Assembly (NCBI GenBank): GCA_029834535.1
Contig: JAQMWT010000671.1
Span: forward strand, 372,001 to 436,000
DNA: 64,000 nucleotides
Reading direction: 5' to 3'
Source of the DNA: Chrysophaeum taylorii
Lineage: Eukaryota; Sar; Pelagophyceae; Pelagomonadales; Pelagomonadaceae
The notes under the pieces are model-generated. The model had not been told where the DNA came from, did not search any database, and worked only from the letters and a program-made list of their open reading frames with translations. A program made the position numbers and the translations under genes. Every line of letters starts with the position of its first letter. The stretch's first letter is position 1. Below, in pieces: positions 1-23,592 of the stretch.

Positions 1-3000
1 ACCGCCCAGCCAAGCGCGAGACCAACTGCAACGCCATCGGCAGTGCCGAGTGCGATACCATCGGCAGTGCCGAGCGCGATACCATCGGCCGTGCCTTCTG
101 CGACTCCATCTTCGGTGCCTTCGGCTCTGCCGTCACTCATGCCGTCGGATGCCCCGACAGTCCTCCCAACCGCCTCTCCAACGGGCTCGCCGTCGGCGGC
201 GCCCTCTGGGCTGCCGACAGGTGCGCCATCTGCACGGCCTTCATCGATGCCGAGCAGGTCACCTTTGAGTACTCCTACAGCAGCACCAACCGCCCAGCCA
301 AGCGCGAGACCAACTGCAACGCCATCGGCAGTGCCGAGCGCGATACCATCGGCAGTGCCGAGCGCGATACCATCGGCCGTGCCTTCTGCGACTCCATCTT
401 CGGTGCCTTCGGCGCTGCCGTCACTCATGCCGTCGGATGCCCCGACAGTCCTTCCAACCGCCTCTCCGACGGGCTCGCCGTCGGCGGCGCCCTCTGGGCT
501 GCCGACAGGTGCGCCATCTGCACGGCCTTCATCGATGCCGAGCAGCTCACCTTTGAGTACTCCTACAGCAGCACCAACCGCCCAGCCAAGCGCGAGACCA
601 ACTGCAACGCCATCAGCAGTGCCGAGCGCGATACCATCGGCCGTGCCTTCTGCGACTCCATCTTCGGTGCCTTCGGCGCTGCCGTCACTCATGCCGTCGG
701 ATGCCCCGACAGTCCTTCCAACCGCCTCACCGACGGGCTCGCCGTCGGCGGCGCCCTCTGGGCTGCCGACAGGTGCGCCATCTGCACGGCCTTCATCGAT
801 GCCGAGTAGCTCACCTTTGAGTAGTCCGACAGCAGCACCAACCGCCCAGCCAAGCGCAAGACCAACTGCAACGCCATCAGTAGTGCCGAGTGCGATACCA
901 TCGGCAGTGCCAAGCGCTATACCATCGGCAGTGCCGAGCGCGATACCATCGGCAGTGCCTTCTGCGACTCCATCTTCGGTGCCTTCGGCGCTGCCGTCAC
1001 TCATGCCGTCAGATGCCCCGACAGTCCTTCCAACTGCCTCTCCGACGGGCTCGCCGTCGGCGGCGCCCTCTGGACTGCCGACAGGTGCGCCATCTGCACG
1101 GCCTTCATCGATGCCGAGCAGCGCACCCTTGAGCACTCCGACAGTAGCACCAACCGTCCAGCCAAGCGCGAGACCAACTGCAACGCCATCGGCAGTGCCG
1201 AGCGCGATACCATCGGCAGTGCCTTCTGCGACTCCATCTTCGGCGCCTTCGGCTCTGCCGTCACTCATGCCGTCGGATGCCCCGACAGTCCTCCCAACCG
1301 CCTCTCCGACGGGCTCGCCGTCGGCGGCGCCCTCTGGGCTGCCGACAGGTGCGCCATCTGCACGGCCTTCATCGATGCCGAGCAGGTCACCTTTGAGTAC
1401 TCCTACAGCAGCACCAACCGCCCAGCCAAGCGCGAGACCAACTGCAACGCCATCGGCAGTGCCGAGCGCGATACCATCGGCCGTGCCTTCTGCGACTCCA
1501 TCTTCGGTGCCTTCGGCGCTGCCGTCACTCATGCCGTCGGATGCCCCGACAGTCCTTCCAACCGCCTCTCCGACGGGCTCGCCGTCGGCGGCGCCCTCTG
1601 GGCTGCCGACAGGTGCGCCATCTGCACGGCCTTCATCGATGCCGAGCAGCTCACCTTTGAGTACTCCTACAGCAGCACCAACCGCCCAGCCAAGCGCGAG
1701 ACCAACTGCAACGCCATCGGCAGTGCCGAGCGCGATACCATCGGCAGTGCCGAGCGCGATACCATCGGCAGTGCCGAGCGTGATACCATCGGCCGTGCCT
1801 TCTGCGACTCCATCTTCGGTGCCTTCGGCGCTGCCGTCACTCATGCCGTCGGATGCCCCGACAGTCCTTCCAACCGCCTCTCCGACGGGCTCGCCGTCGG
1901 CGGCGCCCTCTGGGCTGCCGACAGGTGCGCCATCTGCACGGCCTTCATCGATGCCGAGCAGCTCACCTTTGAGTACTCCTACAGCAGCACCAACCGCCCA
2001 GCCAAGCGCGAGACCAACTGCAACGCCATCGGCAGTGCCGAGTGCGATACCATCGGCAGTGCCGAGCGCGATACCATCGGCCGTGCCTTCTGCGACTCCA
2101 TCTTCGGTGCCTTCGGCGCTGCCGTCACTCATGCCGTCGGATGCCCCGACAGTCCTTCCAACCGCCTCTCCGACGGGCTCGCCGTCGGCGGCGCCCTCTG
2201 GGCTGCCGACAGGTGCGCCATCTGCACGGCCTTCATCGATGCCGAGCAGCTCACCTTTGAGTACTCCTACAGCAGCACCAACCGCCCAGCCAAGCGCGAG
2301 ACCAACTGCAACGCCATCGGCAGTGCCGAGTGCGATACCATCGGCAGTGCCGAGCGCGATACCATCGGCCGTGCCTTCTGCGACTCCATCTTCGGTGCCT
2401 TCGGCGCTGCCGTCACTCATGCCGTCGGATGCCCCGACAGTCCTTCCAACCGCCTCTCCGACGGGCTCGCCGTCGGCGGCGCCCTCTGGGCTGCCGACAG
2501 GTGCGCCATCTGCACGGCCTTCATCGATGCCGAGCAGCTCACCTTTGAGTACTCCTACAGTAGCACCAACCGCCCAGCCAAGCGCGAGACCAACTGCAAC
2601 GCCATCGGCAGTGCCGAGTGCGATACCATCGGCAGTGCCGAGCGCGATACCATCGGCCGTGCCTTCTGCGACTCCATCTTCGGTGCCTTCGGCGCTGCCG
2701 TCACTCATGCCGTCGGATGCCCCGACAGTCCTTCCCACCGCCTCTCCGACGGGCTCGCCGTCGGCGGCGCCCTCTGGGCTGCCGACAGGTGCGCCATCTG
2801 CACGGCCTTCATCGATGCCGAGCAGCTCACCTTTGAGTACTCCTACAGCAGCACCAACCGCCCAGCCAAGCGCGAGACCAACTGCAACGCCATCGGCAGT
2901 GCCGAGTGCGATACCATCGGCAGTGCCGAGCGCGATACCATCGGCCGTGCCTTCTGCGACTCCATCTTCGGCGCCTTCGGCTCTGCCGTCACTCATGCCG

Positions 3001-3400
3001 TCGGATGCCCCGACAGTCCTCCCAACCGCCTCTCCAACGGGCTCGCCGTCGGCGGCGCCCTCTGGACTGCCGACAGGTGCGCCATCTGCACGGCCTTCAT
3101 CGATGCCGAGTAGCTCACCTTTGAGTAGTCCGACAGCAGCACCAACCGCCCAGCCAAGCGCAAGACCAACTGCAACGCCATCGGCAGTGCCGAGCGCGAT
3201 ACCATCGGCAGTGCCGAGCGCTATACCATCGGCAGTGCCGAGCGCGATACCATCGGCCGTGCCTTCTGCGAATCCATCTTCGGTGCCTTCGGCGCTGCCG
3301 TCACTCATTCCGTCGGATGCCCCGACAGTCCTTCCAACTGCCTCTCCGACGGGCTCGCCGTCGGCGGCGCCCTCTGGACTGCCGACAGGTGTGCCATCTG
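1..3400 (+). repeat. Nested tandem array: 264-312 bp units with 24-bp sub-repeats
   Basis: Twelve units carrying the core LPSLMPSDAPTVLPTASPT follow one another. Units begin at 1, 289, 577 and 841, giving lengths of 288, 288 and 264 bp, and four consecutive copies between about 2042 and 2906 are exactly 288 bp apart. The length differences come from gain or loss of a 24-bp sub-repeat encoding PSAIPSAV. The twelfth unit is the most diverged and passes into irregular Pro-Ser repeats that continue to about 5480. All length changes are multiples of three, so the frame is kept. Confidence 0.95.
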
Positions 3401-6400
3401 CTCAGCCTTCCTTGATGCCGAGCCGCGTGCCTACGAGTACGTCGACAGCATCACCGACTGGTCGCCCAAGCGCAAGTCCAACTGCAACGCCATCAGCTCT
3501 GCCAAGCGCAATGCCGTCAGCTGCACCGTCTTCTACTCCATCGTCCGGGCCTTCCTCGCTGCCTTCGTCCATGCCATCGAGTGCCTCGACTGCGGGACCT
3601 TCCGCGTTGCCGAGCGCGAGCCCGACGATGGCACCCTCTGAACTGCCGACAGCTGCGCCATCTGCGCGGCCTTCCTCGACGCCGAGTAGCGCGCCTTCGA
3701 GCGCGCCGACAGCAGCACCATCCGCGCAACCTACCGCTTTCCCATCAGGGACGCCATCTGCTGCACCGACAGCCGTTCCGAGTGCGCAGCCATCTTCGAA
3801 GCCAAGCACTGCGCCGAGTGGTGTGCCGACAGCAGCACCAACTGCGTATCCAACCGCGAGCCCGACAGCCGAACCGTCCGCATCGCCGAGCGCGAAACCG
3901 TCAGACGTGCCGTCTTCCACTCCATCGTCCGGGCCTTCGTTGCTACCGTCGTTCATGCCGTCGAGTGCTCCGACAGTAGCACCAACGCCGTTGCCGAGCA
4001 CAGGCCCGACGGTGGCACCGTCTCGATCACCGACGGCTATTCCAAGCGCTCAGCCATCCTCGACGCCAAGCAGTGCGCCTTCAACCTCGCCGACAGTGAA
4101 ACCAACTTCGCAGCCCAGCACGATTCCAACTGCAAAGCCGTCGACGCTGCCGAGCGCGATACCGTCAGCTGTGCCCTCTTCAATGCCGAGCAGCGCACCG
4201 AGTAGTGCGCCAACGGCGGCACCGACATTATCTCCGAGCGCGAGCCCGACAACAACACCGTCTGCGTTGCCGAGCGCGATGCCGTCAACCGCGCCGTCTT
4301 CGATGCCCAGCAGCGCACCAAGTACTGCGCCGTCGTCTGCACCGACATCATCTCCGAGTGCGAGTCCAACTGCAAGGCCGTCGGCGTTGCCGAGCGCGAT
4401 TCCATCAGCCGCGCCATCGTCTACTCCGACAAGTGCTCCTTCAACGCGACCATCTTCAACGCCGACGAGCGCGCCCACAGCACGGCCAAGTACGAAACCG
4501 ACAGCGACCCCGTCCGGTTCTCCGACAACTGCACCATCTGCGCGGCCTTCCTCGACGCCAAGCGGTGCGCCCACAAGTGTGCCGACTTCATGTCCGTCGG
4601 CAGTACCGAGCGAACACCCTACTATACGTCCGACATTGCTGCCGAGCGGTGTGCCGTCGGTCGCTCCGTCGTCGGCACCATCGAGTGCGCCAACCCCGAG
4701 TCCAACGAGTCGTCCATCAGTGTTGCCGTCCTCAAAGCCGACAAGCGTGCCGTCGGTCGCTCCGTCGTCGGCACCGTCGAATGCGCCAAGTGCGAGTCCA
4801 ACGGCTCGTCCATCAGCGCTGCCGTCCTCAACGCCGTCGGGCGAGCCGTCAGCCGCTCCGTCGTCGGCACCGTCGAATGCGCCAAGTGCGAGTCCAACGG
4901 CTCGTCCAACAGCGCTGCCGTCCTCAACGCCGACGGCTGTGCCGTCGGCCGCGCCGTCGTCGGCACCGTCTAGTTTTCCGTCGGCGACGCCGAGTTCGCT
5001 TCCAACATCGGCGCCGACATATGTGCCGTCGAGTGCACCCTCGACTTTACCGACCCCAGTGCCGAGCTACCTGCCGACGTCAGTACCAACAAGAACGCCG
5101 ACGCCAGAGCCAACAAGAACGCCGACGCCAGTGCCGAGCTTCCAACCTACACCAATGCCAACGAGAGCGCCCTCGGCTTTACCGACGCCAGTGCCGAGCT
5201 TCCAGCCGACGTCAGTGCCAACGAAAACGCCGACGCCAGTGCCGAGCTTCCAGCCGATGCCTGTACCGAGCTTCCAGCCGACGCCAATGCCAACGCGAGC
5301 GCCGACACCAATGCCAAGCTTCCAGCCAACAGAAATGCCGAGCTTCCAGCCGTCGTCAATGCCGAGCTTCCAGCCTTCGTCAGTGCCAACATTCCAGCCC
5401 TCGTCCGTGCCGAGCTTCGAGCCATACTCAATGCCGAGCTTCCAGCCCTCGCAAATGCCAAGCTTCGAGCTCTCCTCAGGGCCGATGCCGTCGTCCATGC
5501 CGAGTCGCTTGCCGCTGATTGTGCCCGCCGTCGGGGGAATCGTCTCCATGCCAACGAGCGAAATGCCGAGCCCCGCGCCGAGCGTCGGGGGATCAACAAG
5601 CTCAATGCCGAGTCCCGCGCCGAGTTCCACGGGTTCTATGAGCTTAATGCCAAGCCCAGCGCCGAGCGGATGGAGCGCGTGCGAGGGCGTGGTGAACCGC
5701 GTGGAGATCGGTCCGTCGCGACTTGTCGCAAACAATCTCAATGGACTCGGGCCTCGAAAAGGCGGCGATGATGTTCTGAAATTCGATGGCGTGTCCGAGG
5801 ACGTCGATCTGACTGTGTCGGCGATTGAGTACGAGGCTTCGAACTCGTCGTTCAACGGGAAACTCGGGGAGTTTGGGCAAATAAACGTGGCAGCGAACAC
5901 GACGGCTGTTTTAGATTTCCGCCTCAGCGAAGAACTGACGAAGTTCGTGCTTACGATTTATGATATAGATCAAGACCAGCGCCAGAGGGAGCAGCTCTGC
6001 GTCGACAATATTGACGAATATGTGGTGGGCGAAAGCACCACCCTCGATGTCGAGCACAGATCCCACGCGTGCGACGGCTCGGAGGGTAGCTCGGTTACGT
6101 TCACTTCGACGCAGCCTGGCTACCTCTGCGACAATCCTACGAGTTCTGAACTCGAGCCAGTCACGTGCGCCGAATGCGAGCAGTGTACACCGGAGAACGC
6201 GGATGAGTTTCCGATTGATCAGGGGAGTCGCACAGTATTATTGGCATTCCAGCGGACACAGAGCATCCGAATCTATTTGACGGTCCTGTGCGAAACCGAG
6301 TGCGCAAGAAAAGACGGTCTCCCCCGTGGCCGTAACTTTTTGTTTGGAGGTGAATCCTCGCTGTGCGCGTGGCCAACACCAGCGCCGACGACTGTGCCAA

Positions 6401-9400
6401 CGTTAGCGCCGTGGGATCCTTGCGTCTCGGTAGCGGACGATCCGGACATCCAGCGCGCCGCGCTCACATCAAACAACCTTGGAGGTCAAGGCCCGCGTGC
6501 GGGCGAGGCTGCAATGAGGTTTTCGGGTGTCATGACCGGCGTCGATCTTGTGGTGACAGCCTCAGAGTACCAAGCTGCCAACGCTTCTTTCAACGGGAAG
6601 TGGCAGGGGCAGTTCGCTCAGATCAACGTCGCCGCGAACACGACGGCGTACCTCACCTTTGAGTTCACCGAAGAGCTGTCTGACTTCGTGCTCACGTTTT
6701 ACGACTTGGACGTTGACCGCAAGCAGAAGGAACAGCTGTGCGTATCGGCGGACGCGTACGTGCTGAGGGACACGACATCTCTTTTAGTGGAAGATGTCGA
6801 GTGTGGGCGGCAATTCACTGCGACGGCACCCGGATTTCTCTGCGATAACCCGACGGAGGATCTTAGCCTTGTCACTTGCGACGAGTGCGAGCAGTGCAAC
6901 GCGGAGAACGAAATCTTTTTTCCCATCGACCTCTCCGAGCGTGCCGTGATGATCGGGTTCGAAAAAACCAAGTCTTTCGACCTGGCGCTCACAGTCTTGT
7001 GCGAGGAGGACTGCGAAGGAAGGGGCCGCAACTTTCTCTTCGGCGGCCAATCCGCGCTTTGCGCGTGGCCATCGCCGGCGCCGACGACTGTGCCAACGCC
7101 TGACCCTTGGGATCCTTGCGTCTCGGTAGCGGACGATCCGGACATCCAGCCCGCCGCGCTCACATCAAACAACCTTGGAGGTCAAGGCCCGCGTGCGGGC
7201 GAGGCTGCAATGAGGTTTTCGGGTGTCATGACCGGCGTCGATCTTGTGGTGACAGCCTCAGAGTACCAAGCTGCCAACGCTTCTTTTAACGGGAAGTGGC
7301 ACGGGCAGTTCGCTCAGATCAACGTCGCCGCGAACACGACGGCGTACCTCACCTTTGAGTTCACCGAAGAGCTGTCTGACTTCGTGCTCACGTTTTACGA
7401 CTTGGACGTTGACCGCAAGCAGAAGGAACAGCTGTGCGTATCGGCGGACGCGTACGTGCTGAGGGACACGACATCTCTTTTAGTGGAAGACGTCGAGTGT
7501 GGGCGACAATTCACTGCGACGGCACCCGGATTTCTCTGCGATAACCCGACGGAGGATCTTAGCCTTGTCACTTGCGACGAGTGTGAGCAGTGCAACGCGG
7601 AGAACGAAATCCTTTTTCCCATCGACCTCTCCGAGCGTGCCGTAATGATCGGGTTCGAAAAAACCAAGTCTTTCGACCTGGCGCTCACAGTCTTGTGCGA
7701 GGAGGACTGCGAAGGAAGGGGCCGCAACTTTCTCTTCGGCGGCCAATCCGCGCTTTGCGCGTGGCCATCGCCGGCGCCGACAACTGTGCCAACGCCTGAC
7801 CCTTGGGATCCTTGCGTCTCGGTAGCGGACGATCCGGACATCCAGCCCGCCGCGCTCACATCAAACAACCTTGGAGGTCAAGGCCCGCGTGCGGGCGAGG
7901 CTGCAATGAGGTTTTCGGGTGTCATGACTGGCGTCGATCTTGTGGTGACAGCCTCAGAGTACCAAGCTGCCAACGCTTCTTTTAACGGGAAATGGCACGG
8001 GCAGTTCGCTCAGATCAACGTCGCCGCGAACACGACGGCGTACCTCACCTTTGAGTTCACCGAAGAGCTGTCTGACTTCGTGCTCACGTTTTACGACTTG
8101 GACGTTGACCGCAAGCAGAAGGAACAGCTGTGCGTATCGGCGGACGCGTACGTGCTGAGGGATACGACATCTCTTTTAGTGGAAGATGTCGAGTGTGGGC
8201 GGCAATTCACTGCGACGGCACCCGGATTTCTCTGCGATAACCCGACGGAGGATCTTAGCCTTGTCACTTGCGACGAGTGTGAGCAGTGCAACGCGGAGAA
8301 CGAAATCTTTTTTCCCATCGACCTCTCCGAGCGTGCCGTGATGATCGGGTTCGAAAAAACCAAGTCTTTCGACCTGGCGCTCACAGTCTTGTGCGAGGAG
8401 GACTGCGAAGGAAGGGGCCGCAACTTTCTCTTCGGCGGCCAATCCGCGCTTTGCGCGTGGCCATCGCCGGCGCCGACGACTGTGCCAACGCCTGACCCTT
8501 GGGATCCTTGCGTCTCGGTAGCGGACGATCCGGACATCCAGCCCGCCGCGCTCACATCAAACAACCTTGGAGGTCAAGGCCCGCGTGCGGGCGAGGCTGC
8601 AATGAGGTTTTCGGGTGTCATGACTGGCGTCGATCTTGTGGTGACAGCCTCAGAGTACCAAGCTGCCAACGCTTCTTTTAACGGGAAATGGCACGGGCAG
8701 TTCGCTCAGATCAACGTCGCCGCGAACACGACGGCGTACCTCACCTTTGAGTTCACCGAAGAGCTGTCTGACTTCGTGCTCACGTTTTACGACTTGGACG
8801 TTGACCGCAAGCAGAAGGAACAGCTGTGCGTATCGGCGGACGCGTACGTGCTGAGGATACGACATCTCTTTTAGTGGAAGATGTCGAGTGTGGGCGGCAA
8901 TTCACTGCGACGGCACCCGGATTTCTCTGCGATAACCCGACGGAGGATCTTAGCCTTGTCACTTGCGACGAGTGTGAGCAGTGCAACGCGGAGAACGAAA
9001 TCTTTTTTCCCATCGACCTCTCCGAGCGTGCCGTGATGATCGGGTTCGAAAAAACCAAGTCTTTCGACCTGGCGCTCACAGTCTTGTGCGAGGAGGACTG
9101 CGAAGGAAGGGGCCGCAACTTTCTCTTCGGCGGCCAATCCGCGCTTTGCGCGTGGCCATCGCCGGCGCCGACGTCGGGGGCGCTCGTGTACGACGCTTCC
9201 GATTCGCTTACGCTCACAACAGACCTGACGTCAGTGAATCTGACTGCGGCCCTGTGCATTTCAGGCGATCCGTGCGCTTCGCGAGTTGAGACGTTCGCCC
9301 GCGGCGTCTACGAGCTCACCCCTCCAACAACGACCCTCGACTTCGGGTACGAGCTTCCTGACCTTCCGCCGGGAATCTACCGCTTCGTCTACTGGTTTTC

Positions 9401-16602: not shown

Positions 16603-17349
16603 ATCGGGAAAAAAAATCTAAGACAACAAGGTCGTCTAGTTCGCTATCCGAACTTAGGAGAAATCCGCCCTTGCGTGCCACAAGGTCCAGAGTCAGCTGT
16701 TTATCTGGCAGTAGCTCTGTTCCTCGTTGTCAGTGAGAAAGCTTCTCCGGGATTTATTGTCCCTGGGAAGTGGGGAATGTATTCCCTACCTGTGTAGTAT
16801 GTAGCTCGCGACATGCGGGATTGGCTAGTCACGCCTAAGACCGCACGCGGTCTCTACCATACAACCGTAGTGGGTCAAACCTCTCCAACAGGCGTAGAAA
16901 CTGAAAATCATCAGAACCCCCCGCCAGCTGTTTCTGGTGTAAACGTTCCATCCGCACCTCCTGATTTCTTACAACGTTACATCTGGCGCATCAGAAACGG
17001 GCAGGTTTATTATTGAGCCTCACCCAACGCGTCACACGATGTCTTACATACATACTAAACTTTTGGCGCTTCAAAAATAGGCAGGTTAATTGAGCATAAC
17101 CCTATGTAGAGTATTCCGCGAGGCAGTGGTGTAAAGTCACTGAAGAACCATCCCGTCTCACCGTGTGAGTCTGGCAGGTTAGAGTTCAGGGAACAGGTTA
17201 CTTTCTCAAGGAAGAAGAAGGGTAGGGAAGAGATCGCTTTCTCAACGGACGGAAAAAGAGCAGGATTCTGCATACTTCTCTGCACCCTCAGCATTACCAC
17301 GTATGGTCACTCTCCGCCGACCGGCCTTTCGGCGCTCCTCGTCTACAGG
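16603..17349. other. No gene; two related short segments
   Basis: No convincing coding sequence was seen. Two related segments, starting TGGCGCATCAGAAACGGGCA (about 16984) and TGGCGCTTCAAAAATAGGCA (about 17064), are imperfect copies of each other about 80 bp apart. Confidence 0.4.
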
Positions 17350-17430
17350 CCCGTGATTCCGGACTGGCTCCTGTCGGTCCGGCCTGGCTCCCATGCTCGG
17401 GAGAGGTCTGAAGTTAGTTAGTTAGTTAGG
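17350..17430 (+). mobile_element. LINE 3'-end fragment with (TTAG)n tail
   Basis: This segment matches, in opposite orientation, the 3' untranslated end of the LINE at 28676-28905. Both share GCCTGGCTCCCATGC, CGGGAGAGGTC and GAAGTTAGTTAGTTAG. It is only the last 80 or so bases of the element and ends in a TTAG microsatellite tail. Confidence 0.65.
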
Positions 17431-17589
17431 ACCAGAAAAAAAAACGTGACCTTTCAAACTGCCCGAACTGGTGGTGGTTCCGGTTTCCATCATGTGCCCA
17501 ACCTGGTTTTCACGTGCGTATGCCACAGTGAAATCTCCAATCGAGGCAAAAGGAGCGGCAAAACCGCGTCGCCCCTGAAAAAAACTCAG

Positions 17590-17660
17590 GGGGATTACGG
17601 GAATCGAACCCGTGGCCACCCGCACCCGAAGCGGGTATCATGCCACTAGACCAAATCCCC
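17590..17660 (-). tRNA. tRNA-Pro (CGG)
   Basis: The 71-nt minus-strand sequence folds as a tRNA with acceptor GGGGATT/AATCCCC, anticodon stem CCCGC/GCGGG around loop TTCGGGT, and T arm ACGGG-TTCGATT-CCCGT. Its D-arm sequence GGTCTAGTGG resembles eukaryotic tRNA-Pro. There is no intron and no encoded CCA. A T7 run a few bases past the 3' end can act as the Pol III terminator. It differs from the next tRNA only at the first anticodon base. Confidence 0.93.
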
Positions 17661-17770
17661 AGGGGCGAATACGCTAATAGAGACACAACTTCCAGAGATA
17701 CACGGTGTTCATGGCTCATGGCTCAACATATGATGTCACGCATCGTCAGATTTCCTGCTTCTCAATTCAG

Positions 17771-17841
17771 GGGGATTACGGGAATCGAACCCGTGGCCAC
17801 CCGCACCCTAAGCGGGTATCATGCCACTAGACCAAATCCCC
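17771..17841 (-). tRNA. tRNA-Pro (AGG)
   Basis: The sequence is identical to tRNA-Pro(CGG) at 17590-17660 except that the anticodon loop reads TTAGGGT. All stems pair. No run of four or more T follows within about 40 nt of the 3' end, unlike the other two copies, so its terminator is weaker or further away. Confidence 0.92.
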
Positions 17842-17885
17842 AGGTATTCGCATTGGATGCAATTCAAGACTGGAAAAGTCGCAGG

Positions 17886-17956
17886 GGGGATTACGGGAAT
17901 CGAACCCGTGACCACCCGCACCCTAAGCGCGTATCATACCACTAGACCAAATCCCC
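17886..17956 (-). tRNA. tRNA-Pro (AGG), variant with anticodon-stem mismatch
   Basis: This has the same architecture and a TTAGGGT loop, but the anticodon stem is CGCGC opposite GCGGG, leaving one G-G mismatch. There are also changes in the D loop and the variable/T-stem side. A TTTT run follows shortly downstream. It may be a working variant or a tRNA starting to decay. Confidence 0.85.
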
Positions 17957-19760: not shown

Positions 19761-20505
19761 TCGCGCCTACCTGATCATTACCCTAAATCGAGGGACAAAC
19801 AAACAAACAGACAGACAGACAAACATCTGTCGATTAGTAGTTAGGACTGAAACATAGTTAACGGCTCGTACGAACTTTCTTATCCGACCCTGCCCTCACC
19901 TGTCCGATTTTCGTGATGGCGTGAGGTATTACGCTGAGATCGGGCGTGTGGTGGTTTCACCCGCGGGTCGGGTTGGGAGAAAGGGTTGTTGAGGCCCCTG
20001 GTCCGGCCAGGAGGGGCGGGTATCTGAGAAAACCACTACAGTGGTCTCAGAAACGGGAATCGATAGTCCAACTCCCGGAATATCGATCTCCTGTTTTTCG
20101 GCGGCGAGTCGGTTCGTAACGGTCGAGTGAGTGCGAAGCCGACGCATTTGTGGGGAAGATCCAGAGGATCACGGGTACCGCCGCGGGGTTCATTTTACGT
20201 GATTCGGATCGAACGGGGAGCGGAGTCACTACGACTCATTTTGCATACTTTTGCATATCGTAAGGCATTGTTATAAGTCCTAACCTAGCTCGCGCGAGGC
20301 AGACCACCTCCTCCCTGACGGCGAGCGACAGCACCGGGAAGGCCGCCCATAGTCTTCACGCGCAAGGCAAGTACTTCCGTAAGACGAGCGCACCGGTACA
20401 GCGCGCAGTCAGACGGCTGCCGGCAATTGTCGTCTGACGAAAAGGAATACAACAAGCGAGTTGTGAGCGTTCGGATTAAGCCTATTATCCGGGCAAAGCG
20501 CGGTC
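19761..20505. other. Microsatellites, no gene seen
   Basis: This holds a two-copy repeat of CTCGCGCCTACCTGATC at about 19738-19775, an (ACAG/ACAA)n microsatellite at about 19797-19826, and otherwise nothing recognised. It may contain the 5' part of the Helitron. Confidence 0.45.
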
Positions 20506-22814
20506 ATGGCAGAGAGGTCAATGGCAGAACGACCGCAGTGGTTTCGTGACGCACTGGAGCGTCTGCAACGATTCAGTGCAGGGACTCCATTTGCGTCTAT
20601 TGGGAGAACACCATTCAGTACGCCCTTCAACGGCCGGAAGCCGAGGAAAGTGGCATCGGAAGAGAGGCAAGATCATCTGATAGCCTCGACAGCCCCCCAA
20701 GCGTGGTCATCCTTCCGGATCCACAGGGACATGATCCCGCCCGACCGAAAAAGCGAGAACAAGACCAAACGGAGAGTGTTTGACTCCCGATTGGAGATGA
20801 CGTTCTCGTGTTGCAAGTGCGACTCAGGAGCGCGATCGACGGAGAGAGGTCCCGTCGTGGCGGTAGCGGTGAAAAACGGAAATACGAAGTCGCTGGGGAG
20901 AATCCTCAACTCGGGCAACTATCTCGGTGGCGACGAGGATTCGGTTCGCGTTCCGTGTCCGAGGAGCCACCGCGACAAGTGTACCAACGTGGGATGCTGC
21001 GGGCGACGCCAGGTTTCAGGGTGTCGTATCGACGCATGTTCGGAAAATGCCGTCGTGGTTCGGCTTTTACGTGAACACGGCGGGAACTGTGAGGTCGAAG
21101 AGCGGGTTGTTTTGGACGATGTGAAGACGATGGGTGCTAGCCAAGACCAAGGAAATCGTAGCCCGGTGTCGTTGAAGCGACGAAACGGCGTTGCCATAGA
21201 AGAGGTGGGAAAACACGCCGTCGTGTTCACGTTCGAGTACGAAAACGATACGGTGCGATGCACCAGACACGACGACGAAAATGTCGTGGATTTTGATGCC
21301 GCTGAAGCGAAGAATACACTTTCGTCATCGGCGGAGATCCTGGTGTACGAGCGGGAGGAAGACGGACGTATTTGCGGGCCAAACGCAATGTCACTTCCCG
21401 CGAGAATTAGTAGACCAAAGATGTCGCGCTGGAGGAGCATCCTGAAAAAAATGAGAACGGGGTCTGAGCGGGTGCGCGACTCGGACAGGGTTGTAATGGC
21501 CCGCCTGCAAGAGGTGGTGCAATCGGTTTTTTCGAGGGAAGTGCGCAGGAGACCGATGGTAGTGAAGACGACAACGATATCGACCTGGAGGGGGGGGACA
21601 CCTTTATCGAGAGGCAGGTCGGTGCGAGGAGCAACGCAACGCGCGGTTCCGCGAGCGGTGGTGAGGGGGCGTCGACTTCGGGGCCATCGGATGCACAGTT
21701 ATCTCGGGAAGCGGCCAAGCGGAAGAAGGCTCTCATCGCCGAGGCTAAGCGCGAGGAGAAGCGGAGGAGGGAGGTTAATCGGAAGAAAGTCGAGGGGAAG
21801 GAATTCGACCTCATCATCGCGAACGACCCCGGAATAACAACGCAGGGGTACCTTCGGCTGCGGACTGGCGACCGTTCCCTCATAAAGGAACAAGACCGCA
21901 TAAATCGACTCAGGGCACTTCGAGACGCTCGAGCCTACGAGGCTGCCGGCGGATATGAATCGCGGGTCAAAAAAAGCGACCTCGGAATTTGAGGGACGGC
22001 GCCAAAAGCCCCGTATTTTGCACGGTGTCCGGCAGGTCATATAATCAGTTCGTCAAAGACCACCAGAAGCGGACCAATCTCCGGCACAAACGCCGGGGGA
22101 AAGGGCGTGACGACGAAGAAGACGACGACGACGACTACAAAAAGGACGTGACGTTGCATGATACCGTCAAGCTCTACCGTTGGATGCTGGAGAGCTGGTA
22201 CTCGTTGTACAAGATCAAAAATTCTGGAAAGGCGCAGACGCGCCGCGAGAGATTGAAGGACTGGGAGGATCGGTGGGTGATTCGAACCCACCGCGGGCTC
22301 GTGCCGTGGGGTGTCCGGACGCTCGTCTTCCGCGGTGACTATTTCGATCGGTACCTTGGCCCGAAAAGGGAGAGACTATGCATCCATCAGCCGGCGCGCG
22401 CCTATGCGCCGGCTAGGTCACGCGATGGATAGAGATCCACAAACGACGGTGCTCTCGACAGGAGAGTTCCGGTCCTCGATGACGTGCCCGAACTCCGGCG
22501 GGGCATGTCTTCACGTCCTCAAGGAGGGCGGAGAGCGAACAATCTGGGGGACTCTGAGGTGTACGTCGTGCTCAATGTGCTGGGGACGTGAACGCACCGC
22601 CACCCTCAACATCTACGCGGTGGGCATGGGTAGCGTCTTCTCCGAGGTCTACCCCGAGGAGCAAGTGCACGACCGGCTTCGCAATTCTGCCGAGGCGAAC
22701 ACGTTCGTGTGCACGGACGTCGCCAAGGCTAAGAACGACGTCGAGAAGAAGGCCTTCAACTGGAACAAGGTCAAGAAGTACAACCGCTGGCGCAAGGTCA
22801 AGGTTGCGACCTGA
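20506..22814 (+). pseudogene. Fanzor/TnpB-like RNA-guided nuclease, frameshifted
   Basis: Three blocks match the RuvC nuclease order of TnpB/Fanzor proteins. EFDLIIANDPGITTQGYLR (about 21802-21860) fits RuvC-I with the DPG aspartate. TGEFRSSMTCPNSGGAC (about 22460) fits RuvC-II Glu plus the first half of a zinc ribbon, with a second Cys pair CTSC. WGRERTATLNI (about 22580-22620) fits RuvC-III W-x-R-D-x-N-A-A-x-N-I, but with Glu in place of the catalytic Asp. A Lys/Arg-rich helix leads into RuvC-I. The N-terminal part (20506-21450) has clustered Cys residues and would hold the guide/target-binding domains. The protein changes frame near 21460 (with a TGA at about 21465), at the A-run near 21970, and between 22311 and 22432. 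Fanzors are eukaryotic TnpB relatives carried by transposons and viruses. Family assignment is by motif only. Confidence 0.6.
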
Positions 22815-23592
22815 ACGTCCTCTCTCCCTTACTACTACCTTGGCGCGCCGCGCAAGTGAGATCATATTCTTGATGCGATTGTGACTAAGTTGCGCGTGTT
22901 TCTTGCACACGAGGTGCGGATACACCACCTACTCGACGGCGACGCAAGCCGGGCCCCATTTACTACTATTCATGGGCCCGGTGATTGATTGTTCTTAATT
23001 GGACAACCCGTGAGTATCATGATGATTTTCTGTTGTTATGATTGTTCGTTATGGTTCGTCTCGTTAGTATTTTTATTGTCCGAGTCCGAAAACATTGCTG
23101 TGTAAGTAGTAACAACGGATTTTTTTTTTATAATTTCCTATACCCCCCGAATCAACCCCCCAAAAAAAAAAAAAATCCTCGATTCGCCAAACCCGCATAT
23201 ATTATTCATTCGACAAAATTTTTTTTCCCTTTTGAGCTCTCTCTTCTTCTAGGCTCGCAGCTGCGAGAGCCTCCTTAAGAGTATCTCTGGCCTGTCCGTT
23301 GAGAAGGTGATAACGGTGCACCACTCCACGTCAGTTATTTATTGATTGTTCCGATCATAAACCCTGATGCCAAAAAAAAGGTAAGGTACACTGGAATGCG
23401 CATGGAAGAATCCAATAGGGTGGGTGTGTGTCCAAAGGATGTGGTGGTGACGTGGGATACTTGTTGTGTAGGGAAGTCATCAGGGGTTGCTGGGTCCTTG
23501 CAAAGTGGTGTGGGACCGGGACAGTGGAGGAGGAGAGAGTTGCGCGGCGAGGATCTTCTTTCTTGTCTTGTCCTGTCCTGTGTCTTGTCGCG
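22815..23592. other. Intergenic, AT-rich in part
   Basis: No gene was seen. It holds homopolymer runs (T9 near 23120, A14 near 23160) and the presumed 5' flank of the ACT-domain gene. Confidence 0.5.

What the first reader, a model, noticed from the sequence alone, without database searches (positions are those of the whole stretch)
20506..22814. Fanzor-like nuclease remnant with Glu in place of the RuvC-III Asp
Three RuvC-type blocks and a split zinc ribbon occur in the TnpB/Fanzor order and spacing: DPG to EFRSS is about 210 codons, and EFRSS to WGRERTATLNI about 40. Fanzors are eukaryotic RNA-guided nucleases, so a guide RNA would be expected next to the gene, toward the 3' transposon end. 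The D-to-E change and the frameshifts suggest a decaying copy, but better copies may exist in the genome.
Basis: partly seen in the sequence, partly recalled or inferred. Interest (0 to 1): 0.72.

Follow-up and report, generated by a model that had tools for sequence, protein, structure and literature searches.

The report
Dead Fanzor-like transposon with guide-RNA candidate
This is a broken, shortened copy of a mobile DNA element whose protein joins protein-cutting enzyme domains to a nuclease resembling the RNA-guided Fanzor kind, and right behind the gene lies a conserved, probably folded RNA that may be the nuclease's guide.

Summary
The blocks are real, but the reading needs correcting. 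The window lies in an unnamed 70.8 Mb eukaryote-like genome; nine other loci hold pieces of the same RuvC protein. The Fanzor-type part is only about 21600-22814. Larger copies (11.3 kb shared by two) encode Ulp1-like protease, USP, then RuvC with zinc ribbon. The window copy is dead (frameshifts, one ribbon Cys lost), but Glu at RuvC-III is not its private decay: 9 of 10 loci have it, including a lineage 33-41% identical; the tenth lacks the stretch. A covariance model built without the window's lineage finds it as its only window match (E 1e-10). Its 16-mer core had nine exact hits in the genome, all at these loci. No Fanzor-type N-terminal lobe was recognised before RuvC. Transcript, guide use and cleavage are untested.

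The parts
19901..20724 (+). fragment of the 5' part of a multi-copy retroelement (leader and start of gag); not part of the Fanzor-like element
   Evidence: 92-97% identical to 33 other places, 31 of them ending at 20724; gag ORF continues in the copies read
20720..23252 (+). 5'-truncated copy of the Fanzor-like transposon, ending in CTAG
   Evidence: 94% identical to C409, C314, C40 from 20720/20723 to 23200-23222; same 3' end in other copies
20720..21370 (+). second half of a USP-type deubiquitinase domain (end approximate)
   Evidence: PF00443 hit in C409, E 2.2e-5, above cut-off; window match
21804..21833 (+). RuvC-I block FDLIIANDPG
   Evidence: DPG in 7 of 7 loci that retain this stretch, three lineages
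21974..22426 (+). RuvC middle part, in another frame in this copy
   Evidence: 84-87% identical to the C409 ORF
22446..22484 (+). RuvC-II block with the alternative Glu (codon 22464-22466) six residues before the ribbon
22485..22571 (+). zinc ribbon; the second Cys is Ser in this copy (CPNS..CTSC)
22587..22613 (+). RuvC-III RERTATLNI, Arg-Glu in place of Arg-Asp (Glu codon 22590-22592)
22812..22814 (+). stop codon, same in C409 and the five copies compared
   Evidence: window by reading
22837..23008 (+). conserved, covarying non-coding block, candidate omega (guide) RNA scaffold
23249..23252 (+). CTAG 3' terminus of the element; in known Fanzor loci the guide begins beyond the element end (inference here)
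   Evidence: for the precedent

Best explanation
Shown: window 20720-23252 is a dead, 5'-truncated copy of a repeated element. Its larger copies encode cysteine protease domains (Ulp1-like, then USP-like) in front of a Fanzor-type RuvC with zinc ribbon, followed at once by a conserved non-coding block with covarying helices and a CTAG terminus. Inferred: the block is the omega RNA of the nuclease. The live ancestor made one polyprotein whose nuclease bound this RNA, used variable sequence at its 3' end as guide, and cut matching DNA (for example the empty site) so that repair would copy or retain the element. The protease domains freed the nuclease from the polyprotein or shielded it from ubiquitin- and SUMO-based removal. 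Glu at RuvC-III is the normal state of this lineage; Asn at this place in active GtFz1 shows that the position tolerates change. The window copy itself cannot act.
For: 10 loci in one genome. Hallmark motif at Fanzor spacing, 0 of 20000 shuffles; PF07282 in 6 of 9 pieces; hhalign 88%, Glu338 on the Asp of RD; best PDB profile hit a TnpB-like protein, E 0.088, weak. Ulp1 E 1.4e-5 and USP E 2.2e-5, both above cut-off. USP-type sequence precedes RuvC in C9 and, weakly, in C548. RuvC dN/dS 0.31-0.78 in 6 comparisons, all with C409. Non-coding block: 103/142 and 90/141 identical to the two other lineages against 45.3% and 43.7% at third codon positions; 93.8% of 260 cells paired against 31-42% in six slid controls, 7 pairs with two-sided change, 0 of 500 shuffles reaching these; a model from the other lineages finds the window block, E 1.1e-10, as its only window match; nine exact genome hits of its 16-mer, all at these loci. 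Asn precedent in GtFz1 (PMC11423790, passages).
Against: The TNB scores shown (17.6 and 20.3 bits) are below the cut-off of 26.3. The plain TnpB profile gave a full-sequence E of 0.065, below inclusion, with one 10.1-bit stretch over the ribbon. RuvC-I rests on motif, position and conservation: no profile aligned it. No WED/REC lobe was recognised; only about 150 residues separate the USP end from RuvC-I. No copy keeps USP end and RuvC-I in one open frame. Only three RNA lineages exist and I chose the helices while looking at them. One of five covariation measures (further pair types) was reached by 72 of 500 shuffles, and one pair of helix 1 is unpaired in 9 of 10 rows. The model used another structure (RNAalifold), so it mainly shows sequence conservation. 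Single-sequence folding is unremarkable (z -2.2, -0.3, +0.5). The SpuFz1 scaffold is about 75 nt, shorter than this block, and about 240 nt lie between block and terminus. No expression data.
Confidence: 0.6

Rival explanations
1. The RuvC-ribbon domain is a catalytically dead or repurposed part of a transposon polyprotein (for example a DNA- or RNA-binding module), and the Glu at RuvC-III marks loss of cleavage.
For: Glu in 9 of 10 loci; no N-terminal lobe found; protease domains recognised in the large copies.
Against: DPG and the alternative Glu are kept where readable, four ribbon Cys in 5 of 10 loci; RuvC dN/dS below 1 in 6 of 6 comparisons; Asn at this place is active in GtFz1 (PMC11423790, passages).
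Confidence: 0.3
2. The conserved block is not a guide RNA but a 3' UTR or cis element used by the transposon's own machinery (packaging, replication origin, transposase or reverse transcriptase recognition).
For: It lies inside the element about 240 nt before its terminus; no transcript evidence; 5'-truncated copies with a common 3' end mean that the 3' region is recognised by something.
Against: It starts 22 nt after the RuvC stop in the window and behind RuvC in all ten loci, where the SpuFz1 omega RNA lies (PMC10432273, section 7); the four copies that keep only about 70-130 bp of the 3' end lack it, so it is not needed in cis for inserting these.
Confidence: 0.3
3. The element is mobilised as a non-autonomous Helitron (rolling circle), like the Fanzor1 Helitron2 elements of Chlamydomonas.
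For: CTAG ends, and CTAA by eye in the C9 lineage, fit CTRR; successive 5' truncations with a common 3' end; no target duplication found at the ends; 40 RepHel matches in the genome, 39 over cut-off; same pattern described in PMC3627910 (passages).
Against: None of the 40 RepHel matches lies on a contig with a copy; the 3' hairpin is weak in C5 and absent in C409; true 5' end never seen; 5' truncation also fits LINE-type insertion.
Confidence: 0.45
4. Chance motif resemblance; not related to TnpB/Fanzor at all.
For: Single-protein searches give only weak matches; plain TnpB profile E 0.065; no related locus in viral contigs by these patterns.
Against: 0 of 20000 shuffles; TNB matched by 6 of 9 pieces; hhalign 88%; DPG and DEFRSS kept in C9, about 50% identical.
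Confidence: 0.05

Closest known systems
Fanzor1 elements in Helitron2 transposons of Chlamydomonas (CRe-1, 2, 3; PMC3627910, passages read)
   Same: Fanzor-type nuclease in a eukaryotic transposon; copies 5'-truncated with a common 3' end, some with foreign sequence at the 5' end
   Different: Larger copies of 11 kb or more with Ulp1 and USP domains; RuvC-III Glu; no target duplication found, whereas many truncated CRe copies have them; Helitron nature not shown
SpuFz1 of Spizellomyces punctatus (PMC10432273, section 7 and passages)
   Same: Nuclease of the same kind with a non-coding RNA between stop codon and transposon end
   Different: SpuFz1 is a single ORF between inverted repeats with a 75-nt scaffold; here polyprotein context, longer block, Glu instead of Asp, no N-lobe recognised
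GtFz1 of Guillardia theta (PMC11423790, passages)
   Same: third catalytic Asp replaced; the enzyme is still active
   Different: Asn there, Glu here
Helitron-encoded tegument-type (VTD) and OTU deubiquitinases (PMC9741609, passages)
   Same: deubiquitinase domains carried by eukaryotic transposons
   Different: one search counts no mention of Fanzor in that paper; here USP and Ulp1 types are joined to a RuvC nuclease

Membership tests
Fanzor | DPG motif at RuvC-I (PMC10711439, passages) | tested here: met
   7 of 7 loci that retain the stretch, three lineages; 3 of 10 loci lack it; no profile aligned it
Fanzor | alternative RuvC-II Glu six residues before the zinc ribbon (PMC10711439) | tested here: met
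   ExxxxxxC exact; EFR in 8 of 8 loci of the window lineage and C9; in C548 and C337 the Glu is followed by a stop
Fanzor | C4 zinc ribbon (PF07282) | tested here: inconclusive
   four Cys in 5 of 10 loci (C409, C314, C586, C29, C350), Cys lost or stretch missing in the other five; Pfam best E 8.9e-5, scores shown below cut-off
Fanzor | Arg-Asp at RuvC-III (motif of PMC3627910) | tested here: not met
   Arg-Glu in 7 and His-Glu in 2 of 10 loci, missing in C9; GtFz1, a Fanzor, has Asn as third catalytic residue
Fanzor | WED/REC N-terminal lobe in front of RuvC (PMC10711439 and PMC10432273) | tested here: inconclusive
   a USP domain lies in front; an unassigned 582-aa domain far upstream had no convincing match
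Fanzor | omega RNA encoded 3' of the gene | tested here: inconclusive
   conserved, covarying block found; transcript and binding not tested
Fanzor | RNA-guided DNA cleavage | not testable with these tools
   needs biochemistry
Helitron | CTRR 3' end, no target duplication, 3' hairpin | tested here: inconclusive
   CTAG in 9 of the 10 3' ends read; no duplication found; hairpin weak or absent
Helitron | ends shared with RepHel-encoding elements | not tested
   RepHel matches exist in the genome; their ends were not read

The most novel reading that the evidence does not exclude
A new branch of Fanzor-type RNA-guided nucleases in which the RuvC half is built into a transposon polyprotein behind SUMO/ubiquitin protease domains, works with an Asp-Glu-Glu catalytic triad, and uses a guide RNA of about 170 nt or more encoded right behind the gene; its N-terminal RNA-binding lobe is missing, replaced or placed far upstream.
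Probability: 0.33. Interest if true: 0.8.

Novelty: new variant of a known kind. Interest (0 to 1): 0.6.

Why it matters
Fanzors are eukaryotic RNA-guided nucleases, and why transposons carry them is open. A lineage that joins the nuclease to deubiquitinase-type proteases, keeps Glu at RuvC-III and has a covarying non-coding block behind the gene gives concrete tests: does the third catalytic position accept Glu, is an N-lobe needed, and why would a transposon couple protease and nuclease. In the held library one paper holds both 'Fanzor' and 'Ulp1', one 'Fanzor' and 'deubiquitin', none 'Fanzor' and 'ubiquitin-specific'; passages of the two show unrelated uses. Most subscription papers are not held.

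Tried and rejected
Single-protein searches of PDB, PHROGs and NCBIfam gave nothing usable. PF07282 against the own genome gave no match at E 0.001. Viral contigs: no relative by peptide patterns, 0 matches of two Fanzor hallmark patterns. Rfam: nothing at E up to 1. Private decay as the cause of the Glu: rejected, 9 of 10 loci share it. The 93 matches of the N-terminal ORF as Fanzor copies: rejected; most cover only about residues 1-60 or 1-90, the gag part. C524 as an eleventh RNA locus: rejected, no model match and no convincing protein match. Stops that end the C409 ORFs as recoding: not pursued; one is a sense codon in C40 and C350, others are shared where the frame itself differs between copies. 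An OTU-like stretch upstream was seen by eye only; Pfam did not find it. USP dN/dS (0.70-1.09) is not used, as the query has out-of-frame ends. The codon-position figures pool all tblastn matches, including an overlapping and a frame-shifted one. The RNAalifold structure of the first alignment had a covariation term of only 0.4 and was replaced by a hand-chosen structure. Shared words at the ends: at most 6 nt in C314, C40 and C29, none in C409 and C350, 8 nt in the window but 38 nt beyond its end; the left end used for C409 was not its true end.

Full report
Setting. The window is G000:C671:372001-436000 of an unnamed 70.8 Mb genome in 697 contigs, which holds Helitron RepHel genes; I take it as eukaryotic. 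A 2957-aa PSxxPS repeat ORF at window 1-8871 reminds me of stramenopiles; that is recall, not a test.

Observation. The motif blocks are present. RuvC-I and the ribbon lie in one frame, the stretch between them in another, the USP part in the third. In the C409 copy the blocks lie in one open frame of 408 aa with Fanzor spacing: D87, E296, seven to the first Cys, Arg-Glu at 337-338. 0 of 20000 shuffles reproduce this, and of 259 stop-free pieces of at least 170 aa only two, both of this family, carry it.

Window 19901-20724 is the 5' part of a retroelement with at least 33 other copies, whose gag ORF continues in the copies read. At 20720-20724 it meets the Fanzor-like element with a few bases in common. 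From there to 23200-23222 the window is about 94% identical to three other copies. The first 650 bases are the second half of a USP domain: Pfam UCH E 2.2e-5, above cut-off, in C409.

Copies and ends. The RuvC part occurs at ten loci: window, C586, C409, C350, C40, C29, C314, C548, C337, C9 (18 matches). C548 and C337 are 97% identical over nearly 2 kb and may be one locus twice, so there are three lineages. C409 and C40 share 11.3 kb. The homology of C29, C314 and the window begins at successively later points of C409 (9400, 10396, 11964) while the 3' end is common. CTAG ends C409, C314, C40, C350, C29, C5, C334, C443 and the window, not C322: 9 of the 10 3' ends read. C5, C334, C322 and C443 keep only about 70 to 130 bp. 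No target duplication was found at the ends (details under Tried and rejected). This resembles the 5'-truncated Fanzor1 Helitron2 copies of Chlamydomonas (PMC3627910, passages). Helitron nature is not proven: none of the 40 RepHel matches lies on a contig with a copy, the terminal hairpin is weak or absent, and 5' truncation also fits LINE-type insertion.

The protein. In C409 the ORFs hold an Ulp1 peptidase (E 1.4e-5, above cut-off), the USP domain and the RuvC half. C9 has USP-type sequence before RuvC; C548 weakly so (E 1.9e-4). Markers from the USP end through the ribbon lie in different frames in different copies, but each neighbouring pair shares a frame in at least two copies; no copy has USP end and RuvC-I in one open frame. 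This fits one ancestral reading frame broken differently in each copy. The stop after the ribbon domain is the same in C409 and the five copies compared. RuvC dN/dS against C409 is 0.31-0.78 in six comparisons, so the protein was under some constraint while it spread.

Family. PF07282 is matched by 6 of 9 pieces at E up to 0.1, best 8.9e-5; the scores shown, 17.6 and 20.3 bits, miss the cut-off of 26.3. From viral contigs 86 TnpB ORFs were taken, 13 dropped for lack of a zinc motif. The profile of the 73 gave the C409 ORF a full-sequence E of 0.065 and one 10.1-bit stretch over the ribbon. Profile against profile, hhalign gives 88% over ribbon and RuvC-III, Glu338 on the Asp of RD. RuvC-I was not aligned by any profile. 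The best PDB profile hit is a TnpB-like protein, E 0.088. The Fanzor hallmark, DPG plus a Glu six residues before the ribbon (PMC10711439, passages), is met; the RD of the older motif is not. I therefore call it Fanzor-like rather than a proven Fanzor.

The Glu. At RuvC-III seven loci read RE and two HE: Glu in 9 of 10; C9 lacks the stretch. Two lineages therefore share it. In GtFz1 this residue is Asn and the enzyme cleaves; D606N raised SpuFz1 activity (PMC11423790, passages). Whether Glu works is untested.

The RNA. Behind RuvC all ten loci share a block (window 22837-23008). There C409 is 72.5% (103/142) identical to C9 and 63.8% (90/141) to C548, while RuvC codon positions 1, 2, 3 are 68.3, 67.4, 45.3% and 58.9, 59.2, 43.7%. 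Plus-strand stops close all three frames in the window and C409 and two of three in C9 and C548. A hand-chosen structure of four helices pairs in 93.8% of 260 cells against 31-42% when slid; seven pairs changed on both sides, and no shuffle of 500 reached four of the five measures, but 72 reached the fifth. Cautions: I chose the helices from these sequences, three lineages are few, one pair of helix 1 fails in 9 of 10 rows, and single-sequence folding energies are unremarkable (z -2.2, -0.3, 0.5). A model built only from C9, C548 and C337, with its own RNAalifold structure, finds all seven loci of the window's lineage; the window block, E 1.1e-10, is its only match in the window. In the whole genome GCGCAMGTGAGATCAT had nine exact hits, at nine of these ten loci. 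With one mismatch it also hits the tenth (C586) and C524, which has no model match; the reversed control gave 2. So no solo copies were seen by this core. The SpuFz1 omega RNA lies between stop codon and transposon end with a 14-15-nt variable 3' guide (PMC10432273, section 7). The same placement makes an omega RNA the best reading; the guide would then start beyond CTAG, window 23253 on (inference).

Mechanism. Most likely the live element used this RNA to direct the nuclease to DNA and favour its own copying, while the protease domains processed the polyprotein or protected it; transposon-borne deubiquitinases are known in Helitrons (PMC9741609, passages). The nuclease step rests on family resemblance, the protease role on analogy alone.

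Novelty. Searches for Fanzor together with Ulp1, deubiquitin and ubiquitin-specific found 1, 1 and 0 papers; passages of the two show a purification protease and Borg elements. Broader listings showed 24 of 25, 15 of 128, 15 of 27, 13 of 13, 8 of 5,529 and 12 of 57 papers, and most were seen as listings only. Whether a Glu at this place has been described was not searched for by itself. I rate it a new variant of a known kind, with a dead copy in the window.

Noticed in passing
window 19901-20724: Fragment of a high-copy gag retroelement joined to the Fanzor-like fragment with a few bases in common; it also lacks about 190 bp of the 5' sequence that other copies share.
   Followed up: partly
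window 17303-17427: 125-bp sequence 96-98% identical to an inverted pair in the C29 stretch and to a place in the C350 stretch: perhaps the end of a small transposon.
   Followed up: no
L058 (C409:16500-24499) and C262:1-9185: The coiled-coil-like ORF in the upstream part of the C409 stretch has repeated, 70-85% identical matches along contig C262.
   Followed up: no
L051/L059 (C40): The C40 copy lies beside an ORF that looks like a histone deacetylase, followed by one that looks like telomerase reverse transcriptase (by eye).
   Followed up: no
L059:2205-4211 (-): OTU-like stretch by eye, without the expected catalytic Cys; Pfam found no match.
   Followed up: partly
L058:5601-7346 (+): 582-aa domain found in C409, C350, C40 and C586; no convincing match in Pfam, PDB, PHROGs or NCBIfam. 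It holds an FSTDGTAF stretch that recalls Fanzor WED sequences (recall only).
   Followed up: partly
window 17589-17956: Three tRNA-Pro genes in a row on the minus strand.
   Followed up: no
window 1-8871: 2957-aa open frame of PSxxPS repeats.
   Followed up: no
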